A stretch of 64,000 nt of DNA from Bacteroidales bacterium (GTDB lineage: Bacteria > Bacteroidota > Bacteroidia > Bacteroidales > Marinilabiliaceae). Positions 14,472-47,886 of the stretch are shown here, one piece after another. The notes beneath the pieces were generated by a model that was not told where the DNA came from, did no database searches, and worked only from the letters and a program-made list of their open reading frames with translations. The translations under genes and the position numbers were made by a program. Numbering within the stretch: the stretch's first letter is position 1; each line of letters opens with the position of its first letter. The stretch lies in NCBI GenBank assembly GCA_024401295.1, contig JAKSLG010000008.1:28748-92747 (forward strand), given 5' to 3'.

Positions 14472-14666
14472 GCCACTCACGCAGAAAGTCGCCTTGAGCT
14501 GTTTGCGTTAAAAAAAATCGGTAAGATCAGCGTTAAGCACGGCAAATGTCTGAGCGAAGCGAGTTCTTGCCGTGTAGCTGAGCGAGACAATTTTTTAGCG
14601 AGACAGCTCTCTGCGACGAGCTCTCTTTTGCTTCGTTTTCTCTGAGCGGTACAGAGAAAATGAAGA
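14472..14666 (-). repeat. Dispersed ~195 bp element, copy 1 (reverse orientation)
   Basis: Read on the minus strand it aligns base for base, with scattered substitutions, to 36285-36482 and 47691-47886. Shared landmarks: a TTTTCTGTNCCGCTCAGA-type start, AGAGCTCGTCGCAGAGAGCT, the hairpin CACGGCAA...TTTGCCGTG, CTTACCGATTTTTTTTAACG, and an end at TGCGTGAGTGG. The inverted-repeat module lies immediately beyond the TGCGTGAGTGG end, as in copy 3. Confidence 0.85.
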
Positions 14667-14766
14667 GAAGAAAAAGCATGCTCTTCTCGCTTCCGTCTTC
14701 TGTCTTCACAGAAGATGAAAAACCCGCCAGCGAGGGCACAGAGCCTATGCCTAACAACATAATCGC

Positions 14767-14802
14767 ATAAAAAAACGACGCCAAGTCAAAACCTGGCGTC
14801 GC
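14767..14802 (-). terminator. Terminator of the BspA-like gene
   Basis: Minus strand stem CGACGCCA / TGGCGTCG followed by a T7 run, beginning 24 bases after the stop codon at 14826. Confidence 0.85.
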
Positions 14803-14825
14803 CTGTAAACTTATTACCTTAAGAC

Positions 14826-17800
14826 TTAAAACTTATCACTTAAAACGCGTCCCGCAAGATCATATTTCTTGCCATCGCGGATAATCACCACGCGACCATT
14901 CTCAACCGTCTTGATTGTCTTCTGGTTGCCGGCGGCATCGATGTCATCGACGGCTGTCGGAGTGCTCTGCTTCTCGTATTTCAAGACAACGTTCACGTTG
15001 CCTTTGTCTGTATCTACTGAGGCGAGGCTGAACTTCGCTTTCATGTCGCCTATCTGCGAGGCATTAATTTCCGTTCCGTTGACCTCTATCGAAAGCGGTT
15101 TTTCTGAATATTCGACCTCGAGAGAACTCTTCGACGTTGCAAAGAAGACCGGCGACGGACCGAGAACGCTCTCGTCGCGATTCACTACGTTATACTTGAC
15201 TCCGACTGTCGCGCCATGCTCACCCTTGGCGAGCACCGGATGCTTGGTGCCTTGTGTCCATTCGCCGTTGAATGTGCCTGAGTAGCCTTCGCCATCGAAG
15301 TTGAGCCAGTAGGCTGGCTCTGCGCCGGCAAATTCCTCATCGGTGAAGAGGCGGTAGTTGAGGTTAATGTCGTCCGGCACTTCGGCGCTCAACATGCTGT
15401 TGCCTTTCGACTTCGTCTTGCCGTTCGATGCGCTCTTCTTCGAATGGCCTCGCGTGCGGCCGTGACCGATGTTCTGAATAACGATTATCGAAGTCTTGTT
15501 GCCAGTCACTTCGCCGTCGAGACCTTCGAAATAGCCAATCACATGGTCGAGTTCGCCGCCCTCTTCGTTGTCGATGACAAGGCAAGCCTCGGCATTCTCG
15601 ATGTCGTCTGCGTCGGCATCTATCTCCATTCGGCCTTCGAAGATGCTGTTGCGGATAAGACCTTTGTTTTCCCTAGCCACAAGACCATAATATGTTTTGC
15701 CTCCATCTGTTACACCTGCCGATGTGGCATCGACGATGAAGTCGCTGAACACCACATTGCGAATCTCTGCGCCCTCACCGATATATCCGAAGATGGATTT
15801 AGGTTGAGTGGCGTTCGCTCTGTGATTACCTTTGACACTTAAATAATTGCCTTCAAGGATGCCCTTGAAAGGATGCTCTGTCGTGCCAAGTGTCTGCCAT
15901 GTCACGTTTTCAGCATCAAGGTCGAAATCCTTAGTGAGAGCTATGGATATCTCCTCGTCCCTGCGCACCTGCTCACCATTGTTGACTGCCCATGCAATGA
16001 AATTACAACTCTCTTTATCAAGAGCTAATGCAAATGTCTTTTCTACCTCGTCACCTATTCCCTCTTTTTCCAAATAGGTAAAACCAACGAACTTGTCGCT
16101 ACCTACATTGTTATATGTGTCCCTATATCCGTCTTCACTTTCAAGAAGATTATCTGGCACAAAGAATTTTTCGACTGTTTCGTATGTCGGAAAAAATTCT
16201 GTCAAGTTGTCAACAACCCTCTCCTGATATATGAAGACATATTTGAGGTTGTCACAACCATAAAAGGTATCGAATTTACTATCAACAGCTGAGTATCCTA
16301 CTGATCCAATTGACACACTCGTCAGATTTGAACAACCATAGAATGCTTTTGCACCGATGCTTGTGACACTTGAGGGTATTTCTATACTCGTCATGTTCGA
16401 ACGGCCATAAAAAGCATTTTGACCAATGCTTTCGACTTCGTTGGGAATAATGGTGTTTTTACATCCCAAAACTAGTGTTTTTGTTGATTTCTCAATTATG
16501 GCATTGCAATTATATCGTGAATCGTATTTTGCATTTTCTTCCGCCACCACAATTGATTCCAGACTTGAACAATTTAAGAAAACCTCTACGTCAATTGATG
16601 TGACGCTTGAGGGAATTGTAATTTTTTTCAAACCAGAACAACCCGAAAAGGCCCCACTACCAATACTTTCGACACCTTCAGGTATCTCTGTATTATTACT
16701 TCCCAAAATGAGTGCGTTTGTTGATTTCTCAATTATGGCATTGCAATTATCTCGTGAATCGTAGTTTGCGTTTCCTTCCGCCACAACAATTGATTCTAAA
16801 CCTGAACATTTTGAGAAAGCTTGCCAACCGATGCTTGTGACACTTGAGGGAATCTCTATGCTCGTCAGGCCTGAACAGCCATAGAAAGCATAGTCACCAA
16901 TGCCTGTGACACCTTCGGGTATTGTTACGCTCGTCAAACCAGAACAACCATAGAATGTATCGTCATAAATTTCTGTGATGCCATCTGGTATCTTTAAATT
17001 GCCTGTCAAACCAGAACAACCCGAAAAGGCCCCACTACCAATACTTTCGACACCTTCAGGTATCACCACGCTCGTCAGGCCTGAACAGTCATAGAAAGCA
17101 TAGTCACCAATGCTTGTGACACTTTCGGCTATCGTCAAATCGCCTGTCAAACCAGAACAACCATAGAAAGCATTCCGACCAATGCTTTCGACATCGTTGG
17201 GAATAATGGTGTTTTTACATCCCAAAACTAGTGTATTTGTTGATTTCTCAATTATGGCATTGCAATTATCTCGTGAATCGTATTTTGCATTTCCTTCCGC
17301 CACCACAATTGATTCTAAACTTGAGCAACTATCGAATGCATAGCTACCAATTCTTGTGACACTCGATGGAATCTCTATGCTTGTCAGACCTGAACAACCT
17401 GAGAATGCTTCACTACTAATGCTTTCGACATCGTCTGGTATCTTAGTATTTTTACATCCCGAAACAAGTGTATTAGTTGATTTCTCGATTATGCTATTTC
17501 CTCGTGACTCGTATTTCGTGTTTTCCTCATCTACTACGATTGATTCCAAACTTGAACATCCAGAAAATATACCGTCATCAATGTAGCTGACACTTGAAGA
17601 AATTTCTACGTTCTTCAGACCTGAACAATCTGAGAATGCATGCCAATAGATTTCTGTAACACCTTCGGGTATTGTCACACTTGTCAGACCAGAACAACCT
17701 GAAAAAGCCTCACTATCAATGATTGTGACGCTTGAGGGAATTTCAACGCTCGTCAAACCAGAACAACCATAGAATGTATCGTCATAAATTTCTGTGATGC

Positions 17801-18602
17801 CATCTGGTATCTTTAAATTGCCTGTCAGACCAGAACAACCCGAAAAGGCCTCACTACCAATACTTTCGACACCTTCGGGAATTATCATACTTGCAAGACC
17901 TGAACAATCTGAGAAAGCATTCCAACCGATCCTAGTGACACTTGAAGGGATTTCAATACTCGTCAAAGCTGAACAGCCCCGAAACGCATAATTGCCAATT
18001 TCTGCGACACCTTCAGGAATAGTAATTTTCGTAATATATTTACAACCATAGAAAGCGTATGGATTGATTTTTGTAACATCTTCGGGAATAACTAATTCCT
18101 TCACTTCTCCATTCTTATCATACAACTTCACATCTGTTGAGGCTAGATTAAACACTTTATCGCCAAACTTTATTCTGCACCATGATTCTATAGAACCTAT
18201 GTGAAGTCTTCTTATAACATTACAACGCTCGAATGCATAATTGCCAATGCTCGTAATGCTTGAAGGAATTTCTATGCTCGTCAAATTAGTACAACCAGAG
18301 AACGCAGAAGTACCGATGCTTGTAACGCCTTCCGGGATGGTGACACTTTTAAGATTTGAACAATTGTATAAAACACGATTACCAATGTTTGTGACAGATT
18401 CTCCGAATTCAACGCTTTTAACCGATTTTCGCGACTCATTCCATGGAATATCTGAAGGTAAAGTGAACGAAAGATTCTTAGTTATCGTCAGCAATCCCTC
18501 GCTGTCAAGCGACCATCCGTCGCCACTATCTACTATTGTCTGCGCTTTTGCTGCAAATCCGAAAATTGCAATGATAATAAGGGACAGGATTTTCTGTTTC
18601 AT
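14826..18602 (-). CDS. BspA-type leucine-rich repeat surface protein
   Basis: 1258 residues. A signal peptide (about residues 1-20) precedes some 30 LRR_5/BspA repeats of about 23 residues (pattern IGxxAFxGCSxLTSIxIPSSVTS), residues 50-800. Several repeats are interrupted by a recurring insert that begins SLESIVVAEGNAKYDSR and continues through an IIEKSTNTLVLGC stretch. Residues 830-1100 carry a GLUG-like region, then a short basic segment (about 1060), then a beta-rich part. The last 30 residues (VENGRVVIIRDGKKYDLAGR) form a tail shared with two other surface proteins in the window. BspA-like proteins of oral and gut Bacteroidales bind host matrix proteins or other bacteria. A -7 box lies 90 bases upstream. 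Long stretches of the gene are near-identical to each other at the DNA level. Confidence 0.92.
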   Translation of the reverse strand: MKQKILSLIIIAIFGFAAKAQTIVDSGDGWSLDSEGLLTITKNLSFTLPSDIPWNESRKSVKSVEFGESVTNIGNRVLYNCSNLKSVTIPEGVTSIGTSAFSGCTNLTSIEIPSSITSIGNYAFERCNVIRRLHIGSIESWCRIKFGDKVFNLASTDVKLYDKNGEVKELVIPEDVTKINPYAFYGCKYITKITIPEGVAEIGNYAFRGCSALTSIEIPSSVTRIGWNAFSDCSGLASMIIPEGVESIGSEAFSGCSGLTGNLKIPDGITEIYDDTFYGCSGLTSVEIPSSVTIIDSEAFSGCSGLTSVTIPEGVTEIYWHAFSDCSGLKNVEISSSVSYIDDGIFSGCSSLESIVVDEENTKYESRGNSIIEKSTNTLVSGCKNTKIPDDVESISSEAFSGCSGLTSIEIPSSVTRIGSYAFDSCSSLESIVVAEGNAKYDSRDNCNAIIEKSTNTLVLGCKNTIIPNDVESIGRNAFYGCSGLTGDLTIAESVTSIGDYAFYDCSGLTSVVIPEGVESIGSGAFSGCSGLTGNLKIPDGITEIYDDTFYGCSGLTSVTIPEGVTGIGDYAFYGCSGLTSIEIPSSVTSIGWQAFSKCSGLESIVVAEGNANYDSRDNCNAIIEKSTNALILGSNNTEIPEGVESIGSGAFSGCSGLKKITIPSSVTSIDVEVFLNCSSLESIVVAEENAKYDSRYNCNAIIEKSTKTLVLGCKNTIIPNEVESIGQNAFYGRSNMTSIEIPSSVTSIGAKAFYGCSNLTSVSIGSVGYSAVDSKFDTFYGCDNLKYVFIYQERVVDNLTEFFPTYETVEKFFVPDNLLESEDGYRDTYNNVGSDKFVGFTYLEKEGIGDEVEKTFALALDKESCNFIAWAVNNGEQVRRDEEISIALTKDFDLDAENVTWQTLGTTEHPFKGILEGNYLSVKGNHRANATQPKSIFGYIGEGAEIRNVVFSDFIVDATSAGVTDGGKTYYGLVARENKGLIRNSIFEGRMEIDADADDIENAEACLVIDNEEGGELDHVIGYFEGLDGEVTGNKTSIIVIQNIGHGRTRGHSKKSASNGKTKSKGNSMLSAEVPDDINLNYRLFTDEEFAGAEPAYWLNFDGEGYSGTFNGEWTQGTKHPVLAKGEHGATVGVKYNVVNRDESVLGPSPVFFATSKSSLEVEYSEKPLSIEVNGTEINASQIGDMKAKFSLASVDTDKGNVNVVLKYEKQSTPTAVDDIDAAGNQKTIKTVENGRVVIIRDGKKYDLAGRVLSDKF

Positions 18603-18694
18603 ATTATTTCAATTCTGTTCAGACACGACAGACAAGTCATGCCTCATATAATTCATTCCGTAAATAATTTATAATCAATCTATTGTATAATACA

Positions 18695-18702
18695 CAAAGA
18701 TA
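18695..18702 (-). promoter_or_regulatory. -7 box (TATCTTTG) of the BspA-like gene
   Basis: Exact TAnnTTTG match, only five bases beyond the stop codon of the preceding gene (18707), about 93 bases upstream of the ATG. Confidence 0.5.
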
Positions 18703-18706
18703 AATC

Positions 18707-19408
18707 CTACATCTTCAGAAAATCCTTGTGACGTTCAATAGGCCTGTAGAAATAAACCACACCATAATCTGCAGCAATTGCTCGCTTGTCGTCGGAATCA
18801 ATAGGAGCAAGCGAGGCTTCAATCTCGTTCCATAGCGCAACAATCAACTTGTCTGCCTTTTCGCGCGATTCGATGAAACGTGCCTGATGCTTCACTATTG
18901 TTTGGAGAATGTCCTTATGCTTGCGATAGACTTCCATGAATTGCTCAAACTTGACCTTTACATTGGCAATCGATGGATTGTATATCCTATTGCCAGTGCG
19001 ACGCTCCTCGCCAGTAATCACCATCTGAGCAATCTCGATAAACTGCTGATCACCGCTCAAATCGGGAAGTGACGAACCATATTCTTCAAGTCCGAGTTGC
19101 TTACGCGCATCGGCTTTTATTTCGCCACGCAATATGCTCATGTTAAGCACTTGAATGAAGTGCGACAGATATAGTCTTGCTGTTTTACCGCTTTCTGTGA
19201 GCTGCTTGCCAATCTGAACCTGCAGACTGCGACTATTCATATATTGACTTAGGTTCTGCTCAAAAACGGGTGTGAACGACGACACCTCGTGTGCAAGCAT
19301 CTGGCTGAAAAGGAGTTTGTCTGCAGATGTCGATGTGGCTTTCTGCATGGCGGCCTTCAGTGATCTCAATCGAGCCTGATCTGTGTTTGGAAGTCTGCGG
19401 TATGGCAT
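18707..19408 (-). CDS. Conserved hypothetical protein, 233 residues
   Basis: Begins MPYRRLPNTDQARLRSLK and is predicted mostly helical throughout, with no signal peptide, membrane helix or cysteine. The style resembles a small uncharacterised Bacteroidales family, but I cannot name a domain. A basic N-terminus and long amphipathic helices (residues 10-130, 150-200) would suit a structural or nucleic-acid-associated protein; that is a guess. It lies directly upstream of the BspA-like gene on the same strand, but the intervening -7 box suggests separate transcripts. The 168-base spacer to 19576 shows no clear promoter. Confidence 0.7.
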   Translation of the reverse strand: MPYRRLPNTDQARLRSLKAAMQKATSTSADKLLFSQMLAHEVSSFTPVFEQNLSQYMNSRSLQVQIGKQLTESGKTARLYLSHFIQVLNMSILRGEIKADARKQLGLEEYGSSLPDLSGDQQFIEIAQMVITGEERRTGNRIYNPSIANVKVKFEQFMEVYRKHKDILQTIVKHQARFIESREKADKLIVALWNEIEASLAPIDSDDKRAIAADYGVVYFYRPIERHKDFLKM

Positions 19409-19576
19409 AATGAATTTTGGGAAAGCGTTTTATACTTGCAAGTATAGTTTTTTTAACGCATTAAAACAAAAAAAATGCTTTTTTTCTCCCAAAAAATGCG
19501 AATAGCACCCGATTTTTGCCGTTTTTATGCTCTGCGCAAAACTTTTCAGCGACAACGAACCACTCCGCGCCCTATC

Positions 19577-20779
19577 CTACCAGCTCTTCGTAGCCTGCAC
19601 TCTCTTATAATGTGGTCCAACGACAAATCGGAAGATGATGAACGATATGACGGAGAGCGTAGCGCCAGTTGCGTATGCCATTTCAAAGCCTAGATGTTGC
19701 GAGATATAACCTCCTGTCAACAGTCCGGCACCAATGCCGCAGTCCCACGATGTCAGATAGGTCGAGACGGCCGTTCCACGCTGGCTATTTGGTGCCAGAT
19801 TGACGAACAGCGTGTTGTATGCCGGAAACATTGTCCCGTATGATATACCCATGAGCAATGCGCTGGCAAGAAAAACCGGTGTCGTGCCAAATGGAGCATT
19901 ATCAGCAATGAATCCACACATACTCAGCAATATAAAGACGATGGTTGCCATCGCGATGCTCGAGAGAATCACACCAACGGTATGGCCTCTGTCCACAAGT
20001 TTCCCGGAGAATATTCGCGACGAGGCAATGCCCAAAGCAAGCAACGTGAAAAAGAAACCGCTCGACACTTCAACACCGAGTTGCCGGCCATACATGGCAA
20101 TATATGTCGTCGTGATTCCGTATGGAATGGAAAGAAGCATAAGTGTCAGTCCGGCACCAAGTCCGCGCACAAGGATAAACCTGTCGAGCGAGATTGGTGG
20201 CCTTGCAACCTTTTCGCGAGGTTTCGTTTTAATCATCGACGCAGCAATAAGACCTACTGCACATGAAATGAACGAGCAGAGGAATATGGTGTTGAACGAG
20301 AAACTCTCATGCATGAAAAGACCTATCATCGGCCCTATCGACATAGCAATGTTATTTGCCATTCCATAATATCCAAGTCCTTCACCTCGGCGCGACGATG
20401 GCATGACATCAATAACTATCGTATTACCGCCAACGGTCACCGTCCCAAAAGCGGCGCCATGGACGATGCGCATAGCGACGAACATTGCCAGACAAAATGC
20501 GCCTATATATGCACCAAAAACGAGCATATATATGGTATATGCAAGCATATAGAGAGGTTTTCGCGCAAAGGCATCGAGCAAGTAGCCCGAAAAAGGGCGA
20601 ACGACGAGAGCGGCAATGGTATAGCACGAGAGCGCGGCGCCAATCGTAGAATTGTCGGCGCTGAAAACTTCGGAAAGATAAAACGGCAAGACTGGCAGCA
20701 GCAGATAGAATCCCATGTAAAGCAGAAAATTTGCTGCCAGAATCAATATATAGCTACGATTGAAAAGCTTCTCTTTCAT
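19577..20779 (-). CDS. MFS transporter (drug:H+ antiporter-like)
   Basis: 400 residues with 12 predicted helices. MFS signature motifs: the motif A-like loop after helix 2 (GYLLDAFARKPLYMLAY, about residues 65-81) and a SSRRGEGLGYYG motif (about 129-140) typical of the efflux-type DHA1 branch; the second-half equivalent is NSQRGTAVSTY (about 331). Substrate is not predictable; multidrug, sugar or siderophore efflux are all possible. It is transcribed alone between a hypothetical gene and the tRNA-Glu/rpsT cluster. Confidence 0.85.
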   Translation of the reverse strand: MKEKLFNRSYILILAANFLLYMGFYLLLPVLPFYLSEVFSADNSTIGAALSCYTIAALVVRPFSGYLLDAFARKPLYMLAYTIYMLVFGAYIGAFCLAMFVAMRIVHGAAFGTVTVGGNTIVIDVMPSSRRGEGLGYYGMANNIAMSIGPMIGLFMHESFSFNTIFLCSFISCAVGLIAASMIKTKPREKVARPPISLDRFILVRGLGAGLTLMLLSIPYGITTTYIAMYGRQLGVEVSSGFFFTLLALGIASSRIFSGKLVDRGHTVGVILSSIAMATIVFILLSMCGFIADNAPFGTTPVFLASALLMGISYGTMFPAYNTLFVNLAPNSQRGTAVSTYLTSWDCGIGAGLLTGGYISQHLGFEMAYATGATLSVISFIIFRFVVGPHYKRVQATKSW

Positions 20780-20821
20780 AACTGTTCAGAGCGTGTCAGT
20801 CTCTAAAAAAATGGCATCGGA

Positions 20822-20860
20822 TAAAAAGCAAAAGCAGTTCTCTTCTTCAGAGAACTGCTC
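20822..20860 (-). terminator. Terminator downstream of tRNA-Glu
   Basis: Minus strand: AGCAGTTCTCT-GAAGA-AGAGAACTGCT then TTTTGCTTTTT. It ends the tRNA-Glu/rpsT/tRNA-Glu transcript. Confidence 0.85.
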
Positions 20861-20863
20861 AGG

Positions 20864-20935
20864 TAGCCCGTAGCAGAATCGAACTGCTCTTTAGAGAATG
20901 AAAATCTCTCGTCCTAACCGATAGACGAACGGGCC
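20864..20935 (-). tRNA. tRNA-Glu (anticodon TTC), copy downstream of rpsT
   Basis: 72 nt without an encoded CCA. Acceptor stem GGCCCGT/ACGGGCT, anticodon loop TTTTCAT with anticodon TTC, T-arm AGCAG-TTCGATT-CTGCT, discriminator A. Its sequence is identical to the copy at 21259-21330. Confidence 0.95.
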
Positions 20936-20974
20936 GCGACCAATATCGTTTACCTGTCAAATTGCTTCACCTGA

Positions 20975-21229
20975 TTAGGCGAGCGTATTGATATGCTTTG
21001 CAAGCTTCGACTTGAGGTTTGCAGCCTTGTTCTTGTGGATGATGTTGCGCTTTGCAAGCTTGTCCAACATAGAAGCAACCTTAGGCAGCAACTCAGCGGC
21101 AGCAGCCTTGTCTGTAGTCTGGCGGAGAGCTTTCACAGCGTTGCGTGCAGTCTTCGCATAGTAGCGATTGTGGAGTCTGCGCTTCTCGATCTGGCGAGTT
21201 CTCTTGATTGCCGATTGATGATTTGCCAT
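20975..21229 (-). CDS. rpsT: 30S ribosomal protein S20
   Basis: 84 residues, very basic, starting [21 protein letters not shown] in the manner of S20 (shown up to residue 20), with the family pattern of three long helices. It binds 16S rRNA early in 30S assembly. The gene sits between two identical tRNA-Glu genes, 39 bases from the left one and 29 from the right one, on the same strand; all three probably share the promoter at 21371-21378. Confidence 0.96.
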
Positions 21230-21258
21230 TTTGTTAACTATTTACTTAATTCTAAATG

Positions 21259-21330
21259 TAGCCCGTAGCAGAATCGAACTGCTCTTTAGAGAATGAAAAT
21301 CTCTCGTCCTAACCGATAGACGAACGGGCC
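21259..21330 (-). tRNA. tRNA-Glu (anticodon TTC), copy upstream of rpsT
   Basis: Same 72-nt sequence as 20864-20935, with the same acceptor, anticodon (TTC) and T-arm. It is the first gene of the tRNA-rpsT-tRNA unit. Confidence 0.95.
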
Positions 21331-21370
21331 GCCTCTTTTATCACAAACAGATTTTCTCCATTTGCGGGTG

Positions 21371-21378
21371 CAAAGATA
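21371..21378 (-). promoter_or_regulatory. -7 box (TATCTTTG) of the tRNA-Glu/rpsT unit
   Basis: Exact consensus 41 bases upstream of the first tRNA-Glu. Confidence 0.5.
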
Positions 21379-21504
21379 GGTTCTTTTTCTTTACTACGCA
21401 ATAGCTTTCTATCTTTTTTTGATTTTTAATGCTTTCAAAGCACATAATTTTTTCGTTAAAACAGCTCTGTTTCAGCTTTTAAGGCCATGCCTGACCTTTT
21501 TACG

Positions 21505-21545
21505 AAAAAAGCAGAACCCGCAAAAATGCGAATCCTGCTTTTCAA
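21505..21545 (-). terminator. Terminator of pheS
   Basis: Minus strand: AAAAGCAGgattCGC-ATTTTT-GCGggttCTGCTTTTTT, starting about 20 bases after the pheS stop. Confidence 0.8.
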
Positions 21546-21565
21546 TATGGTGTCTATATTCTGGT

Positions 21566-22585: not shown

Positions 22586-22606
22586 GAGAATGTATTTTTC
22601 GCGTCG

Positions 22607-22614
22607 CAAAGATA
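22607..22614 (-). promoter_or_regulatory. -7 box (TATCTTTG) of pheS
   Basis: Exact consensus 22 bases upstream of the pheS ATG; it fits in the 37-base gap after the phosphatase gene and fixes the pheS start. Confidence 0.5.
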
Positions 22615-22622
22615 ACGAAATA

Positions 22623-36203: not shown

Positions 36204-36523
36204 GTTCGGCGTAGGCTCCTGCTTTGAATACAGTTAATGCGCAGTCTTTGTTCATTTAGCTTACGCTCAGCTTCGCAGTCTTTGTTCATTCTTTTCTGTT
36301 CCGCTCAGAAAAGAACGAACCAAGAAAAGAGCTCGTCGCAGAGAGCTGTCTCGCTAAAAAATCGTCTCACTCAGCTACACGGCAAAAACTCGCTCCGCTC
36401 AGACATTTGCCGCGCTTCACGCTGATCTTACCGATTTTTTTTTTAACGCAAACAGCTCAAGGCGACTTTTTGCGTGAACGGCACTTACATTGTTAATATG
36501 CAAGGCTGGAGCCTACGCCGAAC
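36204..36523. repeat. 320-bp unit bounded by GTTCGGCGTAGGCTCC inverted repeats
   Basis: GTTCGGCGTAGGCTCC at 36204-36219 and its exact reverse complement GGAGCCTACGCCGAAC at 36508-36523 bracket copy 2 of the dispersed element. The structure looks like a MITE with 16-bp terminal inverted repeats. The rest of the 36131-36632 spacer is low complexity plus the next gene's terminator. Confidence 0.75.
36285..36482 (+). repeat. Dispersed ~195 bp element, copy 2
   Basis: Near-identical to 47691-47886 and, inverted, to 14472-14666. Similarity to copy 3 extends further left to about 36247 (TTCATTTAGCT...CGCTCAG). An open frame of 62 codons (36237-36425) runs through it; the same frame is open in all three copies over its last ~30 codons. 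Confidence 0.85.
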
Positions 36524-38035: not shown

Positions 38036-38054
38036 CGGAATAAAGACAAAAACT

Positions 38055-39428: not shown

Positions 39429-39433
39429 CTAAT

Positions 39434-39513: not shown

Positions 39514-39517
39514 GGGG

Positions 39518-39556
39518 AACAAAAACGGACACCTCCCCCCCCGGAGATGCCCGTTC
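39518..39556 (-). terminator. Terminator of the 472-residue surface protein gene
   Basis: Minus strand AACGGGCATCTCC / GGAGGTGTCCGTT with a poly-G loop, followed by TTTGTT. The C8 run on the plus strand (39534 onward) is a homopolymer that may vary. Confidence 0.7.
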
Positions 39557-39575
39557 CCATATCATTTTATTGTAG

Positions 39576-39595
39576 AGACGTTTCATGAAACGTCT
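39576..39595. repeat. Perfect 20-bp palindrome AGACGTTTCATGAAACGTCT
   Basis: Preceded by TGTAG. From memory, TGTAGAGACGTT-type palindromes are abundant dispersed repeats in several bacterial groups including Bacteroidota. It lies between the terminator and the stop of the surface-protein gene. Confidence 0.7.
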
Positions 39596-39629
39596 TCATG
39601 GCATGCCGCGTCTCCACGCTACATGTCAA

Positions 39630-41048: not shown

Positions 41049-41106
41049 ATAAATAGTTGATAAATTAGTTCCATAAATAGTAAAAAACATCCGAAAAATA
41101 TATCCG

Positions 41107-41114
41107 CAAAGGTA
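41107..41114 (-). promoter_or_regulatory. -7 box (TACCTTTG) of the 472-residue surface protein gene
   Basis: Exact consensus 58 bases upstream of the ATG at 41048, supporting that start. Confidence 0.5.
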
Positions 41115-41251
41115 TGTAATATATTTCAATATGTTGCATATAATGAAGGATATATCCAACATTGGCATGACACCAACCTCCCTGAATTCAAATATGTTAT
41201 ATGCTGCCATGCGATATATGCGACATATTGTTGCGACACAATGTTTTTCAG

Positions 41252-41259
41252 TATCTTTG
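41252..41259 (+). promoter_or_regulatory. -7 box (TATCTTTG) of the ThiF/MoeB-like gene
   Basis: Exact consensus 21 bases upstream of the ATG at 41281, with ATTG at 41227-41230 as a -33 candidate. It excludes the longer reading that would start at 41131. Confidence 0.5.
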
Positions 41260-41280
41260 CACATCGAAAACAGACGAAAA

Positions 41281-42003
41281 ATGGGAAGAAGCATATTCAC
41301 AGATGAAGAGGTACAGCGTTACCTGCGCCATATAGACCTGAAGGGCGTTGGTCCTGAAGGTCAACGCAAACTGAAGGACAGCAGAATATGTGTTGTCGGT
41401 GCGGGTGGACTCGGCTCGCCAGCGTTGCTGTATCTTGCTGCCGCAGGAATCGGCACGATAGGCATTGTGGATGGCGACAATGTCGATCTGAGCAATCTTC
41501 AGCGTCAGGTAATACATTCGACAGCGGCCGTCGGCACGCCCAAATGCCTCTCAGCCCAAAGACGCATTGCCGAGATTAATCCGCATGTCAATGTCGTCTG
41601 CTACAATGAATTTCTCACGGCCGAAAATGCCGAATCGATACTGAGTCAGTATGATTTCATAATCGAGGCAACGGACCATTTCGAGTCGAAATATCTCGTC
41701 AACGATACGTGTGTGAAGATTGGCAAACCGTTCAGCATTGGCGGAGTCCAGCAGTTCGGAGGCCAGACAATTACGTGTGTTCCAGGCAGCCGAACCTATC
41801 GCGACGTCTTTCCTGAGGCAGAAGACACACGCGGCTGCCAGTCGTGTGCCGCTCAAGGCATACTCGGCATCGTTCCGGGCATACTCGGAACAATTCAGGC
41901 AACGGAAGCCATAAAGCACACGCTCTCTCTAGGCCAGCTGCTGACCGACAGACTACTGATCTTCGATGCGCTGAGCATGTCGTTCAATGTACTCAGATTC
42001 TGA
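41281..42003 (+). CDS. ThiF/MoeB/HesA-family adenylyltransferase
   Basis: 240 residues. An E1-like enzyme that adenylates the C-terminus of a small sulfur carrier (MoaD/ThiS type). Visible: N-terminal YLRHIDLKGVGPEGQ, nucleotide-binding GAGGLGS (40-46), Asp64, the arginine Arg75 (SNLQRQ), and one CxxC (Cys186/Cys189). The second CxxC pair of MoeB and any C-terminal rhodanese domain are missing; the protein ends shortly after NVLRF. No moaD, thiS or other cofactor gene is adjacent, so the partner is unknown. Its stop codon directly abuts the stop of the convergent deaminase gene with no spacer. Confidence 0.88.
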   Translation: MGRSIFTDEEVQRYLRHIDLKGVGPEGQRKLKDSRICVVGAGGLGSPALLYLAAAGIGTIGIVDGDNVDLSNLQRQVIHSTAAVGTPKCLSAQRRIAEINPHVNVVCYNEFLTAENAESILSQYDFIIEATDHFESKYLVNDTCVKIGKPFSIGGVQQFGGQTITCVPGSRTYRDVFPEAEDTRGCQSCAAQGILGIVPGILGTIQATEAIKHTLSLGQLLTDRLLIFDALSMSFNVLRF

Positions 42004-42468
42004 CTAATACGGCGTTTTATCCGTTTTCTCGTCCCACTTGCGGAAAGTTGCGAGTGCTTCTTTGTGCTGGCACTGCGTCTCAGGAATTTCTCTTGAGCCG
42101 ATAGGCTTTTCAATCTGCCTATATATGAAGCTGTCGTCGAAGTTGATGCGTGCGGCATCGGCCTGTGTGTTGCCATAATATATGTGACGAAGACGAGCCC
42201 AATAGATTGCGCCGAGACACATTGGGCAAGGCTCGCACGACGTGTAGATTTCGCAATCGCTGAGGTCAAATGTTCCCAGATTCTTTGATGCGTCACGAAT
42301 GGCAGTCACCTCGGCATGAGCCGTCGGGTCGTTGTTTGCCGTAACTCTGTTTGTGCCACGTCCGACGATTTCTCCATTGCGCACGACGACGGCGCCAAAT
42401 GGTCCGCCACCATTATCTATGTTTTCCGATGCCAGACGAATGGCCTCTTTCATAAGATTTTTGTCCAT
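42004..42468 (-). CDS. Nucleoside/guanine deaminase (CDA superfamily)
   Basis: 154 residues. Zinc-binding motifs HAEVTAIRDA (His/Glu, about 51-60) and CEPCPMCLGA (about 78-87) define a cytidine deaminase-like fold; GGGPFGAVVV precedes them. The size and the WARLRHIYYG and C-terminal DKTPY region resemble bacterial guanine deaminase (GuaD) more than tRNA adenosine deaminase TadA. It probably converts guanine to xanthine. Convergent with the ThiF-like gene; the stops are adjacent. Confidence 0.85.
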   Translation of the reverse strand: MDKNLMKEAIRLASENIDNGGGPFGAVVVRNGEIVGRGTNRVTANNDPTAHAEVTAIRDASKNLGTFDLSDCEIYTSCEPCPMCLGAIYWARLRHIYYGNTQADAARINFDDSFIYRQIEKPIGSREIPETQCQHKEALATFRKWDEKTDKTPY

Positions 42469-42540
42469 AACCTGTAATTTTTGCCTGCCCCTAATTTAGA
42501 AAAAATATTTGTTTCGACGCGCAAGATATGTCCATAAACA

Positions 42541-42581
42541 GAATTTGCCCCTACAGTCACCGGGACCATAGGGGCAAATTC
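42541..42581 (-). terminator. Perfect 13-bp stem-loop downstream of rpmF
   Basis: GAATTTGCCCCTA / TAGGGGCAAATTC with a 15-base loop. It follows rpmF by 25 bases on the minus strand; the U-tract is weak, so it may act partly as an RNA 3'-end stabiliser. Confidence 0.6.
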
Positions 42582-42605
42582 TACATCGTAGAAATGCTTG
42601 AGAAA

Positions 42606-42791
42606 TTAGGCCATAACCTCTTTTTCTACAGCAAGTTTTCCGCGATAGTAACCACATTCAGAGCAAACAGTGTGGAGCTGGATAGCTGCACCGCAGTTTG
42701 AGCATACACCAAGCGTAGGAGCAACTGCCTTGTAGTGAGTGCGACGCTTTGCTGTACGTGTCTTCGAATGGTTTCGTTTAGGATGTGCCAT
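42606..42791 (-). CDS. rpmF: 50S ribosomal protein L32
   Basis: 61 residues, starting MAHPKRNHSKTRTAKRRTHY with a zinc ribbon CSNC...CSEC (about residues 30-46). It is 18 bases downstream of the DUF177/YceD gene, the standard yceD-rpmF pair. Confidence 0.96.
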   Translation of the reverse strand: MAHPKRNHSKTRTAKRRTHYKAVAPTLGVCSNCGAAIQLHTVCSECGYYRGKLAVEKEVMA

Positions 42792-42809
42792 TTTCTTACG
42801 GTTATTAAA

Positions 42810-43361
42810 TTATTGTTTATCAATCAATCCCTTCAAATTGGCAAACGGCAGATTCTTGTCGGCCTCTTCGTCGGTTTTTATTTCATCTTCGCTTACCAGA
42901 TACTGGTTGAGACGCTCAATCATCTCGGGGTCGCATGTCGAATTTCCGTTTTCATCTTCTGGATGAACGAATCGGATCGGCAGGCTGACAGCCAGAATCT
43001 CGTAAATCCATTGTGCGACGTTGATTTCGTTTTCGTAGTCGGCAAGCTGGAACAAATCCTCGGAAATTTCCTCGCTCGTTTCGCCGAACTTAACCATCAT
43101 GTCGCCTTCGCAATCCTCGATAGGATAGTCGAACTCTCCGAGACAAATATCGCACGTTGCACGTATGATGCCGCTGATATTGAAGTGGAACTTGAGCATC
43201 TGGCTACTCTTGACGAGATTGACCTCGGCTGTGAGCTTGCCACCATTGATGAGCGAATTCTCAATGCCTGCAAAGAATGCGTCATCAACCTCGAATGTGA
43301 AGTCGTGCGAGCCATCCTTGAGCGCCTTGAAGGCGATGCTGTATTTAGCGTTGAGTTCCAT
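42810..43361 (-). CDS. yceD: DUF177 (YceD) protein linked to L32 and 23S rRNA
   Basis: 183 residues from the ATG at 43361; a GTG three codons upstream is possible. DUF177 core: ATCDICLGEFDYPIEDCEGDMMV (given here up to CEG; Cys pair C-D-I-C) in the middle, followed by an acidic stretch and a conserved ...YEILAVSLPIRFVHPED region. In E. coli YceD is needed for 23S rRNA accumulation and is co-transcribed with rpmF. The -7 box TAACTTTG is at 43390-43397. Confidence 0.9.
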   Translation of the reverse strand: MELNAKYSIAFKALKDGSHDFTFEVDDAFFAGIENSLINGGKLTAEVNLVKSSQMLKFHFNISGIIRATCDICLGEFDYPIEDCEGDMMVKFGETSEEISEDLFQLADYENEINVAQWIYEILAVSLPIRFVHPEDENGNSTCDPEMIERLNQYLVSEDEIKTDEEADKNLPFANLKGLIDKQ

Positions 43362-43389
43362 CTGGTCCACAGTTTCTCAAAAAGCGGTG

Positions 43390-43397
43390 CAAAGTTA
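43390..43397 (-). promoter_or_regulatory. -7 box (TAACTTTG) of yceD-rpmF
   Basis: Exact TAnnTTTG match 29 bases upstream of the yceD ATG. Confidence 0.5.
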
Positions 43398-43437
43398 CAA
43401 ATTATTTTGCAGATAGTTGTGCAATATGCATCTATTT

Positions 43438-44322
43438 TTATTCAACGTCGTCGTCTTTGCCTGTTTCGGGTGCCGGACAATAGTCGTCGGAACGTACCGC
43501 AATGCCCTCACAGACAATGATTATGGCGATAACCGAGATGATTGGCAGAATGGCGCCTGGGTCTTCGGCCGGCTGCGAAACGAATTCGGCAATCGGCATG
43601 TCGGTTGTCATTGCAGCAACGAGAACCATCGCATTATTGACCACGTGCGCAGCTATGGAATAGAGCAGATTGCCAGTCTTCAGATAGATGAATCCGAGAA
43701 CAAAGCCAAGGACGATGCGAGGCAGCAGGCCCGATGCTTCCAGATGGATGAGGCTGAAGAATATTGCAGAGATGACGACGGCCGAAGTCGTCGATTGCAT
43801 GAGTTGCAATGTTCCGCGAAGAATGACGCCACGGAAGAAAAATTCCTCGCATATTGCCGGCAGAATCGAGATGACGAGGAATGTCATGATGAGATGCGAG
43901 GACGGACTGAATGATATCATCTTGGCGATAAGGTCGCTCGTATCGACATCGACGAATTTGAGCCATTCCATCTGTGGCATCTCGCATATTCGTTCGTTGA
44001 TGAACGATGTCCACGCGACAAGCGGCTGACAGACAAAAATCAGCAGTATGGAAAGGGTCATCACGCTTCCCTTTGTCTTCCATTTGAGATATGATGCGCA
44101 GATGCGCCGTTCGCCGACATACATGGCAATGAATGCCGGTACGAGAAATGTTATGATGCTCGAGATGCCCTGTGCGACCATGAGTGACCAATAGCCGGCT
44201 GTCTTGCTGTCGCCAATCATATAGATTGCAACGGCGCTGCTGACAATGGTCATCACCATCATGGCGATGAGCGCTGCAACGAGTGTTGAAATTGCTCGCA
44301 AGCGTGTTTCGCGGTTCTCCAT
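43438..44322 (-). CDS. CPBP-family intramembrane glutamic protease (CAAX protease-like)
   Basis: 294 residues with about eight hydrophobic helices. Motif 1 EEFFFR (Glu159-Glu160...Arg164) and motif 2 FFSLIH (His193) are the catalytic signatures of the CPBP/Abi family. Bacterial members take part in bacteriocin immunity or maturation, or in signal processing; the target here is unknown. It begins 6 bases after the S41 protease gene, so the two proteases are probably made together. Confidence 0.88.
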   Translation of the reverse strand: MENRETRLRAISTLVAALIAMMVMTIVSSAVAIYMIGDSKTAGYWSLMVAQGISSIITFLVPAFIAMYVGERRICASYLKWKTKGSVMTLSILLIFVCQPLVAWTSFINERICEMPQMEWLKFVDVDTSDLIAKMISFSPSSHLIMTFLVISILPAICEEFFFRGVILRGTLQLMQSTTSAVVISAIFFSLIHLEASGLLPRIVLGFVLGFIYLKTGNLLYSIAAHVVNNAMVLVAAMTTDMPIAEFVSQPAEDPGAILPIISVIAIIIVCEGIAVRSDDYCPAPETGKDDDVE

Positions 44323-44328
44323 ACAGAA

Positions 44329-46041
44329 TTAATCCTTCTCGATAGAGCCACGCTTGTCGCCGGCATGACTTGCGACGGTGCCGTCGAGCAAGCCTTTGTA
44401 GCGTGCTTCGTCGTTGATGGTCTTGACTGCTTCGGTTATGACCTCGTCGGATTTGACAGCATGCTTGGCTGCGCCCTTATTATAATAGTATGAGATGAGA
44501 ATCTGGCTTTCGAGAAGATCCTGTATCTCGTCGCGTGCAGCTGCAATGTCCTTGTCGAGGTCTGGCGCAAGTGCTTTGCCCATCTGGTCGAAAAGTTCCT
44601 TGTTTGCATCGTAATACTTGTTGCGCTTTGCTGCGCTGACGAGTTTCTTGAACTCTTCGTCCGATTCGTTTTTGTATGTGAACTTGGTGTTCTGGGCAAC
44701 GAATTTGCAGAAATCCTGATAATCAGCATCGCTGAGCTTGAAATCTTCGGCTGGTGCGATTGTCGGATGTGTGCTTCGATACTGAACGGCATAGCGGAAT
44801 ATCAAATCGTTGGCAACAACGGCATACGAGATGTTTGAATATGAAGGCAATGTCACGTGAACGTCTGGCGAGACGCCGCCACCATCATAGACCTTGCGGC
44901 CGTTGGCTGTCTTGAACTCGCTGATGAGCGAATCGGCAACGAGACCGACGGCACCGTCTTTGTTGCGATGCGAATAGTCAATAGCCTGGATGCATCGGCC
45001 CGAAGGAATGTAATATTTTGCCGTCGTCAGCTTGAGACCGCCATTGTATTCAATTTCGCGTGTGCTCTGCACAAGTCCCTTGCCGAACGAACGCTGACCG
45101 ACAATTACCGCACGGTCGAGGTCCTGAAGTGCACCGGCAACGATTTCAGCTGCCGAAGCCGAACTGCGGCTCACAAGAACAACGATTGGAATCTGCGTGT
45201 CAATAGGCTCTTTCGTCGTTCTGTAGGTCTTGTCATACATGCTTATCTTGCCCTTCGTGCTGAGCACTTCCGAGCCTTTTGGAACAAACATGCTGACGAT
45301 CTTTATCGCCTCGTCGAGCAAACCGCCCGGATTGTCGCGCATATCGAGGATGAGCTTTGTTGCGCCTCGTTTCTTGAGGTCAGACAACGCCGTCTCAATC
45401 TCCTTTGAGCAGTCCTGCGTGAAATTGTTGAAGTCGATATAGCCAATATTACCATCAACCATGTCATAGAACGAGACAGGATTGATCTGCACCTTCTCGC
45501 GACGTATTGACTTTTCGATGAGTTTAGGTTCGCCGATTCGCCATATCTTGACCTTTGCTTCGGTGTTAGGCTCGCCACGCAGATTTTCGCTTATATCGCT
45601 GACTTTCATGTTCTTGGCAGACTTACCATTGATCTCGACGATATAGTCGCCATTGCGTATTCCGGCACGATCGGCAGGCTTGCCCTCATAGACCTCGCGG
45701 AACATGACATAGCATGTGTCCGAAGCCGAGATGATTGAACCGACACCGCCATATTCGCCTGTTGTCATGAACTTGAAATCGGCCATCTCCTCTTCCGGAA
45801 TATAATTCGTATATGGATCGAGGCTGCCGAGCATCTCGTCTATGGCTTTCTTTATCAGCTTTTTAGGATCTGTCTCGTCAACATAATATGCATTCAGTTC
45901 CTTAAAGACAGAATAGAAAATATCAAGATTTTTGATTATTTCGAAATTACGCTTGTCATTCTTAAATCCGAGAAAAACACATGCGACAGCGCCTGCAACA
46001 GCAACGCAGCCCATGGTCATCAATGCCTTCTTCAGTCTCAT
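44329..46041 (-). CDS. S41 C-terminal processing peptidase
   Basis: 570 residues from the ATG at 46041, where a signal/anchor sequence begins (MRLKKALMTMGCVAVAGAVA). Domain order: N-terminal helical cap, PDZ (GVGSIISASDTC...YIVEINGKS, about 100-190), and the S41 core with the catalytic serine in SRSSASAAEIVAGAL and lysine in GQRSFGKGLVQ. A C-terminal helical region of about 150 residues follows. Such proteases cleave proteins from their C-terminus in the periplasm. A near-consensus -7 box (TATCTTAG) lies at 46070-46077. Followed by the CPBP protease gene. Confidence 0.93.
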   Translation of the reverse strand: MRLKKALMTMGCVAVAGAVACVFLGFKNDKRNFEIIKNLDIFYSVFKELNAYYVDETDPKKLIKKAIDEMLGSLDPYTNYIPEEEMADFKFMTTGEYGGVGSIISASDTCYVMFREVYEGKPADRAGIRNGDYIVEINGKSAKNMKVSDISENLRGEPNTEAKVKIWRIGEPKLIEKSIRREKVQINPVSFYDMVDGNIGYIDFNNFTQDCSKEIETALSDLKKRGATKLILDMRDNPGGLLDEAIKIVSMFVPKGSEVLSTKGKISMYDKTYRTTKEPIDTQIPIVVLVSRSSASAAEIVAGALQDLDRAVIVGQRSFGKGLVQSTREIEYNGGLKLTTAKYYIPSGRCIQAIDYSHRNKDGAVGLVADSLISEFKTANGRKVYDGGGVSPDVHVTLPSYSNISYAVVANDLIFRYAVQYRSTHPTIAPAEDFKLSDADYQDFCKFVAQNTKFTYKNESDEEFKKLVSAAKRNKYYDANKELFDQMGKALAPDLDKDIAAARDEIQDLLESQILISYYYNKGAAKHAVKSDEVITEAVKTINDEARYKGLLDGTVASHAGDKRGSIEKD

Positions 46042-46170
46042 CGTGTGGTCTATATTGATAAATATTGTGCTAAGATATACATTTATTTGCACATAGACGC
46101 CCGAAAAGGGCAGAAAGATTCTCAGATTTTTTGGCAACAACGCTCCCGACACACGATTATTACTCATAGT

Positions 46171-46189
46171 TGACCATAAATAATGGTCA
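46171..46189. promoter_or_regulatory. Dyad TGACCAT-aaata-ATGGTCA between divergent promoters
   Basis: A 7-bp inverted repeat between the S41 protease promoter and tyrS promoter. It could be an operator or a weak hairpin; no protein can be assigned. Confidence 0.3.
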
Positions 46190-46215
46190 TCTTTTCATTG
46201 CTGAATAAAAATGCG

Positions 46216-46223
46216 TACCTTTG
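46216..46223 (+). promoter_or_regulatory. -7 box (TACCTTTG) of tyrS
   Basis: Exact consensus 43 bases upstream of the tyrS ATG, with TTTC at 46192-46195 as a possible -33. Confidence 0.5.
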
Positions 46224-46266
46224 TCACCCGTAAAGTAATAACAAACAAAAATATAAAGATACTTCG

Positions 46267-47553
46267 ATGAATTTTGTTGAAGAATTGAAGTGGCGTGGTA
46301 TGATCGCCGAGATAATGCCAGGCACAGAAGAACAGCTCAACAAGGAGCTCACCTCGGCATACGTAGGCATAGACCCAACAGCCGATTCGTTGCATATTGG
46401 CCACCTTGTTTCTGTGATGATGCTCAAGCATTTCCAGAATGCAGGCCATCGTCCTATCGCATTGGTCGGTGGTGCAACAGGCATGATTGGCGACCCTTCG
46501 ATGAAATCTGCTGAGCGCAACTTGCTCGACGAAGATACTCTCCGCCACAATCAAGACTGCATCAAGAAGCAACTCGCAAAGTTCCTTGATTTCGACTCGG
46601 ATGCTCCAAACGCCGCAAAGCTCGTGAACAACTACGACTGGATGCGCGACTATTCATTCCTGAACTTCATCCGTGACATCGGTAAGCATATCACCGTGAA
46701 TTACATGATGGCAAAAGACTCTGTGAAGAAGCGTCTGTCAAGAGATTCATCCGTTGGTATGTCATTCACAGAATTCTCATATCAGCTCCTTCAGGGCTAC
46801 GACTTCCAATATCTCTACGAACACGAAGGATGCCGCCTCCAGATGGGTGGTTCCGACCAGTGGGGCAACATCACGACAGGCACAGAGCTCATCCGCCGCA
46901 AGCTCAATGGCGAGGCATACGCATTGACATGCCCATTGATTACAAAGGCTGACGGCGGCAAGTTCGGCAAGACTGAAAGCGGCAACATCTGGCTCGATCC
47001 GGAAAAGACTTCGCCATATAAGTTCTACCAGTTCTGGCTCAACACTTCAGATGCCGATGCAGAGAAGTATCTCAAGATCTTCACAATGCTCAGCAAAGAG
47101 GAGATTGAGGCTTTGGCAAAGGAGCAGGCTGAGGATCCGGGCCGTCGTCCAATGCAGAAGAAGCTCGCCGAGGAGATCACAATCATGGTTCACAGCAAAG
47201 AGGCTCTTGAGGCTGCCATCGAGGCATCGCAGATCCTGTTTGGCAAGGGTTCGGTTGAGACACTTCACAAGATGGACGAAGAGACATTCCTTTCGGTTTT
47301 CGAAGGCGTGCCGACATTCGACATCGAGCGTTCAAAAATCGAGGCTGGCGTGGCTGTTGCCGACCTCCTCACAGCTGATGCTGCTGTCTTCCCTTCAAAG
47401 GGCGATTTGCGACGCAACATTGCAGGTTTGCAAATCAACAAGGAGAAGATTGATGCCCCTGAAAAGGTTGTCAATGCTGATGCTTTGCTCAACAACAAGT
47501 ATATTCTTGTTCAGAAGGGTAAGAAGAATTTCTACCTCCTCATCGTGAAGTAA
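46267..47553 (+). CDS. tyrS: Tyrosyl-tRNA synthetase
   Basis: 428 residues, full length. Class I signature HIGH at 43-46 (SLHIGHL), the tyrosine-specific [10 protein letters not shown], and the KMSKS loop as KFGKT (about residue 235). A C-terminal S4-like RNA-binding domain covers about 350-428. No T-box leader is visible in the 43-base upstream region. Confidence 0.97.
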
Positions 47554-47585
47554 TTCGAGTTTTATAATTCTGATATAGCAGAGTG

Positions 47586-47617
47586 GCCAGCGCATTTTTT
47601 GCGCTGGCTTTTTTTTT
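47586..47617 (+). terminator. Terminator of tyrS
   Basis: GCCAGCGCA / TGCGCTGGC followed by nine Ts. Confidence 0.92.
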
Positions 47618-47690
47618 CTCTGTTTCCGCTCAGAGGAAAAGAAGTGATATTCGTGGACAAGTCTTCATTTAGCTGTCGCTCAGTTTTATG

Positions 47691-47886
47691 TTCATTCTTT
47701 TCTGTTCCGCTCAGAAAAGAACGAACCAAGAAAAGAGCTCGTCGCAGAGAGCTGTCTCGCTAAAAAATCGTCTCACTCAGCTACACGGCAAAAACTCGCT
47801 TCGCTCAGACATTTGCCGTGCTTAACGCTGATCTTACCGATTTTTTTTAACGCAAACAGCTCAAGGCGACTTTTTGCGTGAGTGGT
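47691..47886 (+). repeat. Dispersed ~195 bp element, copy 3
   Basis: Same orientation as copy 2 and the closest match to it; differs at a handful of positions (for example CGCTTCGCTC versus CGCTCCGCTC, GCTTAAC versus GCTTCAC). Contains the complete hairpin CACGGCAAA...TTTGCCGTG. Ends TGCGTGAGTGG, followed within 10 bases by the inverted-repeat module. Confidence 0.85.

What the first reader, a model, noticed from the sequence alone, without database searches (positions are those of the whole stretch)
14472..47886. A ~195 bp dispersed element in three copies
14472-14666 (inverted), 36285-36482 and 47691-47886 are near-identical over about 195 bases, although they lie 22 kb and 11 kb apart in unrelated intergenic regions. 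Each has an internal hairpin (CACGGCAA...TTTGCCGTG), the same A/T-rich centre and the same TGCGTGAGTGG-like end, and each has GTTCGGCGTAGGC arms close by. No transposase is linked. A 30-codon frame is open in all three; of about five differences in it three are silent, which is suggestive but far too few to claim coding. It could be a MITE-like element, a structured RNA or a very small gene family.
Basis: seen in the sequence. Interest (0 to 1): 0.8.

Follow-up and report, generated by a model that had tools for sequence, protein, structure and literature searches.

The report
Folding DNA repeat carried by MITEs
The three copies belong to a family of short non-coding DNA repeats, found mainly in Bacteroidota, that keep the same folded shape while their letters change, and that in related genera ride inside small mobile elements of two different kinds.

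Summary
The three copies are 3 of 18 first-type copies in a 75%-complete, 2.3-Mb genome. A 133-135-bp core folds into one long imperfect hairpin. A smaller hairpin precedes it, followed by a purine tract that tends to mirror the hairpin's purine arm. Relatives keep the fold with rewritten arms. A covariance model finds the family in 8 of 15 genus genomes, 50 of 71 family genomes and 9 of 197 others from the phylum; a tip pattern also finds it in Pasteurellaceae and Methylophaga. In 71 diverse members 22 of 24 pairs have changes on both sides. No reading frame is conserved. In one sister genus the core lies inside a MITE with exact 8-bp target duplications in 17 of 28 insertions; in another, inside a MITE with other ends and 9-bp duplications exact in 4 of 12. 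No Rfam match covers an element searched. Reading: a non-coding folding cassette spread as passenger DNA of MITEs, function not shown. The small module has the plan of E. coli BoxC. In the window's own genome the mobile ends were not found.

The parts
47695..47721 (+). copy 3, module A: small hairpin (pyrimidine arm, loop, purine arm R1)
47727..47737 (+). copy 3, purine tract R2, 10-base mirror match to R1
   Evidence: row L001; coordinates read
47738..47870 (+). copy 3, module B: core long hairpin, 133 bp
47793..47811 (+). copy 3, conserved tip AACTCGCTTCGCTCAGACA
36289..36315 (+). copy 2, module A hairpin
36332..36466 (+). copy 2, core long hairpin, 135 bp
36387..36405 (+). copy 2, conserved tip (AACTCGCTCCGCTCAGACA)
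36204..36219 (+). GTTCGGCGTAGGCTCC arm left of copy 2
   Evidence: converted from G000:C39
36508..36523 (-). GTTCGGCGTAGGCTCC arm right of copy 2
   Evidence: converted from G000:C39
14488..14620 (-). copy 1, core long hairpin, 133 bp
14547..14565 (-). copy 1, conserved tip
14636..14660 (-). copy 1, module A hairpin, of another sequence than in copies 2 and 3
   Evidence: (row L004)

Best explanation
This is a non-coding repeat made of two folding modules. Module A is a short hairpin (pyrimidine arm, loop, purine arm R1) followed by a purine tract R2 that tends to mirror R1, the plan of an intrastrand triplex. Module B is a ~133-nt imperfect hairpin of four covarying helices with conserved A/T-rich internal-loop motifs and a conserved 19-nt tip. 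Shown: copies, architecture, covariation, no conserved frame, and residence in sister genera inside two kinds of MITE with target-site duplications. Inferred: the window's copies spread in the same way, as passenger DNA moved in trans by transposases that read outer inverted repeats, with modules swapped between copies by recombination. Inferred and weaker: the fold acts on the strand opposite to the one listed here, which has most of the tolerated wobble pairs. I commit to it acting as a folded strand behind genes, an RNA hairpin in 3' transcript regions, rather than as a gene or as a site for one transposase; that last step I put at about 0.4. The confidence given is for the rest of the statement.
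For: Copies: 23 model matches in G000. Distribution: 8 of 15 genus, 50 of 71 family, 9 of 197 other phylum genomes. Covariation: 16 of 24 pairs with changes on both sides in the unfitted alignment A1; 22 of 24 in 71 members, score 0.613 against 0.124 shuffled and at most 0.086 slid (fitted alignment). Module A: hairpin in 176 of 226 members against 11 of 226 shuffled; mirror match z 12.6. MITE residence: 17 of 28 exact 8-bp duplications in G015, control 17 of 756 at 7 of 8 or better; 4 of 12 exact and 8 of 12 at 8 of 9 or better in G033, no control run. Strand: wobble-type mismatches 116 against 70, p 0.0009, 18 against 1 in the most variable helix. Context: 36 convergent and 14 divergent gaps against 34 and 61 in background, p 5e-5.
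Against: In the window's own genome no ends or duplications of a mobile unit were found; the GTTCGGCGTAGGC arms bracket only copy 2. No autonomous partner was found: no ISL3-type transposase in G015, no Y1 transposase in G000; G000 is 75% complete. Wobble is rare (21 of 1410 paired cells on the listed strand; 38 A-C cells, wobble on the other), and changes on both sides are about as common as or commoner than one-sided ones even between near relatives, which suits DNA-level pairing or re-templated arms better than an RNA. One covariation measure does not exceed shuffles: further pair types 67 against 66.0, 220 of 500. Mirror beats direct similarity in 27 of 70 members, loses in 22, ties in 21. 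The gene-sense excess is 43 of 70, p 0.07, and G000's own 13 scored copies show no divergent depletion (2 convergent, 3 divergent, 8 codirectional).
Confidence: 0.7

Rival explanations
1. The fold works as single-stranded DNA, not RNA: a hairpin with a very stable GNA mini-hairpin tip, exposed during replication or transposition. Complementarity of the arms is kept by strict Watson-Crick need or by template switching between the arms.
For: Pairs change almost only between Watson-Crick types: 1389 Watson-Crick cells, 21 G-U cells. Between members 85-100% alike, changes on both sides number 15 against 17 one-sided (A4) and 51 against 22 (A3). The tip on the folding strand reads GCGNAGC with all four bases at N, the form of very stable DNA mini-hairpins (PMC4686876, passages). 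Module A has the BoxC plan, for which DNA triplex formation is reported (PMC4666352).
Against: The strand asymmetry of wobble and the position behind genes are not explained by it directly. L087, L089 and L092 (a G015 member) break the GNA rule.
Confidence: 0.3
2. Neutral passenger: the core is a leftover interior of MITEs with no function; its palindrome is kept by palindrome repair and recent copying.
For: MITE residence with target duplications; arms change together even between near relatives.
Against: The tip and loop motifs are conserved between Bacteroidota and Pasteurellaceae and in MITEs with unlike ends, though the arms are rewritten.
Confidence: 0.2
3. A REP-like palindrome moved by a REP-associated (Y1) transposase.
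For: Intergenic, palindromic, modular; depleted in divergent gaps.
Against: No Y1 match in G000. In the genus Y1 matches occur in 3 of the 8 carriers (one below the cut-off) and in 2 of the 7 genomes without the repeat. In G015 and G033 it sits in MITEs with target duplications.
Confidence: 0.04
4. A very small protein gene.
For: In 80 non-redundant members two of six frames exceed every one of 20 shuffles, weakly: 17% open against a maximum of 14%, and 12% against 10%.
Against: Even the best frame is closed in 83% of members, and the spacing between conserved anchors falls in all three phases.
Confidence: 0.02

Closest known systems
BoxC / TMECO, potential intrastrand triplex elements of E. 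coli (PMC4666352: abstract, passages, sections 15 and 16 seen)
   Same: Module A has the same plan: pyrimidine arm, loop, purine arm, spacer, second purine tract; intergenic and repeated.
   Different: A/T-richer, longer spacers, and followed by the long hairpin; the two K-12 BoxC copies read have no such hairpin or tip.
Bacterial MITEs (general knowledge; ISL3-like and IS4-like labels are recalled from end sequence and duplication length, no call names them)
   Same: In G015 and G033: terminal inverted repeats, 8- and 9-bp target duplications, no gene inside, many copies.
   Different: The interior fold is shared between MITEs with unlike ends and between distant hosts.
REP / BIME palindromes with RAYT transposases (recalled)
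   Same: Intergenic palindromes in modular combinations, depleted between divergent genes.
   Different: Much longer two-module fold; no Y1 transposase in G000.
bcr1-type chromosomal repeats of the Bacillus cereus group (recalled; search listing only)
   Same: Dispersed repeat of similar size with a predicted fold.
   Different: No sequence or fold comparison was made here.

Membership tests
MITE | terminal inverted repeats at sharp ends of a short gene-free element | tested here: met
   Met in G015 and G033; ends could not be defined in the window's own genome.
MITE | target-site duplication | tested here: met
   G015: 17 of 28 exact 8-mers, 22 of 28 at 7 of 8 or better, control 17 of 756; G033: 4 of 12 distinct insertions with 9 of 9, 8 of 12 with at least 8 of 9, no control. 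Not found for the window's copies.
MITE | a full-length transposon with the same ends | tested here: inconclusive
   PF01610 gives no match in G015 and one frame in G033; other transposase families were not searched.
structured RNA family | covariation of paired positions | tested here: met
   unusually Watson-Crick-only
structured RNA family | transcribed | not testable with these tools
   no expression data
structured RNA family | a known Rfam family | tested here: not met
   Window at gathering thresholds: three tRNAs only. 17 loci at E up to 1: the five hits do not overlap an element (positions).
BoxC / intrastrand triplex element | second purine tract mirrors the purine arm | tested here: met
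   mean z 12.6 over 70 members; mirror exceeds direct in 27, falls short in 22, ties in 21
BoxC / intrastrand triplex element | triplex forms in solution | not testable with these tools
   needs CD or NMR
BoxC / intrastrand triplex element | G/C-rich consensus CCCTCNCCC...GGGNGAGGG | tested here: not met
   module A arms are A/T-rich purine tracts
REP with RAYT | Y1 transposase in the carrier genome | tested here: not met
   none in G000, which is 75% complete
integron attC site | core sites and cassette arrays | not tested
   considered from memory only

The most novel reading that the evidence does not exclude
The core is a selfish folding cassette in its own right. It has entered MITEs with unrelated ends and hosts of more than one phylum, keeps its fold rather than its letters, and its arms are re-templated on each other by a single-strand DNA mechanism, with the triplex module as a replication stop that helps copying.
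Probability: 0.15. Interest if true: 0.85.

Novelty: new variant of a known kind. Interest (0 to 1): 0.62.

Why it matters
The insides of bacterial MITEs are usually taken as leftovers of a parent transposon. Here one folded interior is shared by MITEs with unlike ends and by distant hosts, its arms rewritten and its pairing kept. That makes it directly testable whether such interiors are under selection, and whether as RNA or as single-stranded DNA. It also supplies a large natural set for hairpin and triplex work, and a covariance model that would annotate many intergenic stretches for which Rfam offers nothing.

Tried and rejected
Small gene: disfavoured on frames and phases. REP/RAYT: no Y1 transposase in G000 and no tracking in the genus. 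Linked transposase or reverse transcriptase: an all-against-all comparison of 2985 open frames from the loci held printed its 25 largest clusters; I saw no mobility gene among them by eye (ABC transporters, TonB-like proteins, repeat-derived frames, shared synteny); smaller clusters were not looked at. Autonomous ISL3 partner in G015: not found. BoxC as the same element: the two K-12 copies read lack the long hairpin. Integron attC: from memory only, not tested. Phages: no match for the window copy; one IMG/VR contig by the tip pattern. Plasmids: weak matches in 7 records for an Elizabethkingia member. E. coli: none for a Pasteurellaceae member. A pseudoknot between the loop of module A and the bases before the core is supported over 70 members (z 9.1), strongly where the loop reads CTTGAT, but only 4 bases match in rows L001 and L004 (window copies 3 and 1), so I do not claim it there. 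Two earlier forms of that script used wrong windows, and one script used a pattern that could not match; those results are not used.

Papers: sequence strings were searched without a hit. They cover open-licence PMC papers only, so I do not claim that nothing is in print.
Full report
What was checked. The three stretches are real. BLAST of copy 3 against the window's own genome (G000, 2.3 Mb in 40 contigs, 75% complete) gives 25 matches; 19 of them cover core sequence (L001-L019) and the rest are pieces. The covariance model gives 23 matches in G000. I read 18 as the window's type, two of them cut by contig ends, and 5 with one and the same score as a second type (the split is mine, from the scores and the sequences). 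In the window the model finds the three copies and nothing else.

Anatomy. Put in one orientation, the copies share a 133-135-bp core from CTCGTCGC to AAGGCGAC; one of them, L017, carries an insertion. The core folds into one long imperfect hairpin. For copy 3 with flanks the listed strand gives -64.3 kcal/mol (z -2.5) and the opposite strand -75.1 (z -3.6). Before the core lies a smaller hairpin whose sequence differs between copies of the same core, for example TTCTTTTCTG/CAGAAAAGAA, TTTCTTCTTTG/CAAAGAAGAAA and CTTCCATCTTCTGT/ACAGAAGACGGAAG; the right flanks too are of a few interchangeable kinds. The repeat is modular.

Relatives and covariation. Of 61 genomes (own included) 6 had DNA matches: the window's own and 5 of its genus. 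These keep the layout while the arms are rewritten and still pair. A plain MAFFT alignment of 19 chosen members (A1) gave 24 consensus pairs on the listed strand, 16 with changes on both sides; on the opposite strand 31 pairs, 18 with such changes. A model from A1 (R1) found 8 of 15 genus genomes, up to 35 copies; 50 of 71 family genomes in 17 of 21 genera, up to 37 copies; and 9 of 197 other genomes drawn evenly from the phylum, at E up to 1e-5 with strict filters that lose weak matches.

Other hosts. Of the 113 loci I gave 61 to the model; all 61 matched at E up to 0.01, 71 places in all. The pattern is part of the model, so this is not an independent confirmation. The weakest are Methylophaga L137, Saccharibacteria L154, Actinobacillus porcinus L184 and Blautia L135. 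Single contigs in odd hosts may be misbinned or contaminated. On the 71 members 93.3% of cells pair, 22 of 24 pairs have changes on both sides, and the covariation score is 0.613 (0.124 shuffled; at most 0.086 slid); the number of further pair types, 67, does not exceed shuffles (66.0). That alignment was fitted to the model and leans towards it; A1 was not.

Which strand, and DNA or RNA. Aligning the two arms of each element without a model, wobble-type mismatches fall on the opposite strand more than on the listed one: 116 against 70 in 78 non-redundant members, taken from 151 that passed the score among 162 found; p 0.0009; by member 34 against 17 with 27 ties, p 0.024. In the most variable helix they are 18 against 1. 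A strand-biased mutation process could also do this. Against RNA, wobble is rare: 21 of 1410 paired cells on the listed strand, and 38 A-C cells, which are wobble on the other. Between members 85-100% alike, changes on both sides number 15 against 17 one-sided in A4 and 51 against 22 in A3. Re-templating of arms or strict DNA pairing would give that. I therefore keep the DNA reading as a serious rival.

Tip. Nearly all members read AACTCGCTNCGCTCARACA, all four bases occurring at N (the tip expression used there fixed part of it). On the opposite strand this is GCGNAGC. DNA with a GNA or GNNA loop closed by G-C pairs makes unusually stable mini-hairpins (PMC4686876, passages). Four members (L085, L086, L103, L104) change the outer of the two stem pairs from G-C to A-T on both sides; L087, L089 and L092 break the loop rule. 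It is a tendency, not a rule.

Module A. A hairpin at the expected place is found in 176 of 226 members and in 11 of 226 shuffled ones; the 226 include the same place held under more than one locus id. In 70 non-redundant members the purine tract after the hairpin resembles the mirror of the purine arm (longest match 6.36, swapped control 4.78, z 12.6) and also, less, its direct copy (5.90 against 4.93, z 8.3); the difference has z 5.3. By member the mirror wins in 27, the direct copy in 22, with 21 ties. The loop matches the complement of the following bases (4.56 against 3.58, z 9.1) (all). Mirror symmetry is what an intrastrand triplex needs, and the long mirror matches (8 to 13) are mostly in the window's genus and other Bacteroidales. 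The plan pyrimidine-loop-purine-spacer-purine is that of BoxC/TMECO in E. coli, for which PMC4666352 reports triplex formation by CD and NMR (abstract, passages and sections 15-16 seen). The two K-12 BoxC copies that I read have no long hairpin after them.

Mobility. In G015 the core lies inside an element that starts GGCTCT and ends AGAGCC; 18 of 28 distinct insertions are 314-316 bp long, the others 219-544. Of the 28, 17 have an exact 8-bp duplication and 22 match in at least 7 of 8; flanks of unlike insertions match so in 17 of 756 pairs. Two of the 28 lack the tip; one of these holds a run of N. In G033 the core lies in an element with ends CAGTATTGTCC and GGACACTAATG. Ends were recognised in 12 of the 20 loci given; three of the 15 rows printed are the same insertions on the other strand. 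Ten of the 12 are 315-325 bp long; 4 have a 9 of 9 duplication and 8 at least 8 of 9; no control was run for G033. Four of four Alkalitalea and two of three Natronoflexus loci show ends like those of G033 (by eye). The ends of G015 and G033 are unlike, so one core travels in two kinds of MITE. In the window's own genome I could not define ends or duplications. Copy 3 lies behind the tyrosyl-tRNA synthetase gene. Behind that gene the tip is absent in 12 of 12 same-genus genomes in which it was found; two more gave no match. Gene order downstream differs there, so these are not clean empty sites. The gene name is my reading of the translation.

Gene context. With a simple frame caller of my own, elements lie in 36 convergent, 14 divergent and 70 codirectional gaps; other gaps of at least 150 bp number 34, 61 and 109. 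Two elements fell inside frames of 150 codons or more (all loci together). Convergent against divergent gives p 5e-5; copies in one genome are not independent, and G000's own 13 scored copies (2, 3 and 8) do not show the trend. In codirectional gaps the folding strand is gene-sense in 43 of 70, p 0.07.

Coding. In 80 non-redundant members the best frame is open in 17% (shuffled mean 9%, maximum 14%) and another in 12% (5%, 10%); anchors fall in all three phases. This is not a conserved frame.

Function. Not shown. Because the core is shared by MITEs with unlike ends, it is unlikely to serve one transposase. Position behind genes, strand bias and conserved loops point to a folded strand in 3' regions: RNA first at about 0.4, DNA at about 0.3, a neutral passenger at about 0.2.

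Naming. Equal contig lengths link G014 to an uncultured Marinilabiliaceae (Reindeer_2_mag_9), G002 to SIG108, G005 to Horse_feces94, G021 to Alkaliflexus imshenetskii and G019 to Natronoflexus pectinivorans. The window's genome is therefore very likely a gut or rumen member of the Marinilabiliaceae; that is inference.

Noticed in passing
G000, 34 places; in the window 14282-14297, 14411-14426, 36204-36219, 36508-36523, 47979-47994: A separate dispersed repeat, GTTCGGCGTAGGCTCC, often as inverted pairs, 17 forward and 17 reverse with up to one mismatch; reversed control 0.
   Followed up: partly
G000: C4:58413-58552, C8:32999-33138, C10:14347-14486, C10:33529-33668, C19:27302-27441 (L020-L022 and L025 hold four of them): A second core type in the window's genome with the same layout and a G/C-richer long hairpin, five copies of one and the same score.
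   Followed up: partly
L102 (G078:C1), 996-1632: Four relatives of the core in tandem, about 165 bp apart.
   Followed up: no
L118 4195-4537 and L180 4229-4568 (Pasteurellaceae bacterium Pebbles2): Two elements face each other around an AAGTGCGGT inverted pair, which resembles the uptake signal of that family as I recall it.
   Followed up: no
L108, L120, L136, L186, L200 (Chitinophagaceae, Sediminibacterium and unclassified Bacteroidetes MAGs): Members without module A that appear to lie at one shared locus, judged from shared neighbour proteins and flanks; possibly a retained, non-moving copy.
   Followed up: no
L121 6277-6439 (Pedobacter cryotolerans): A Flavo-1 RNA (Rfam RF01705) just at the gathering score, about 300 bp from an element.
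   Followed up: no
window 20864-20935 and 21259-21330: Two tRNA genes on the minus strand with the same score, about 320 bp apart.
   Followed up: no
window 14400-14460 and right flanks of L005, L008, L013: Short A/T-rich repeats of the kind AAGTTATAAG follow several copies of the core.
   Followed up: no
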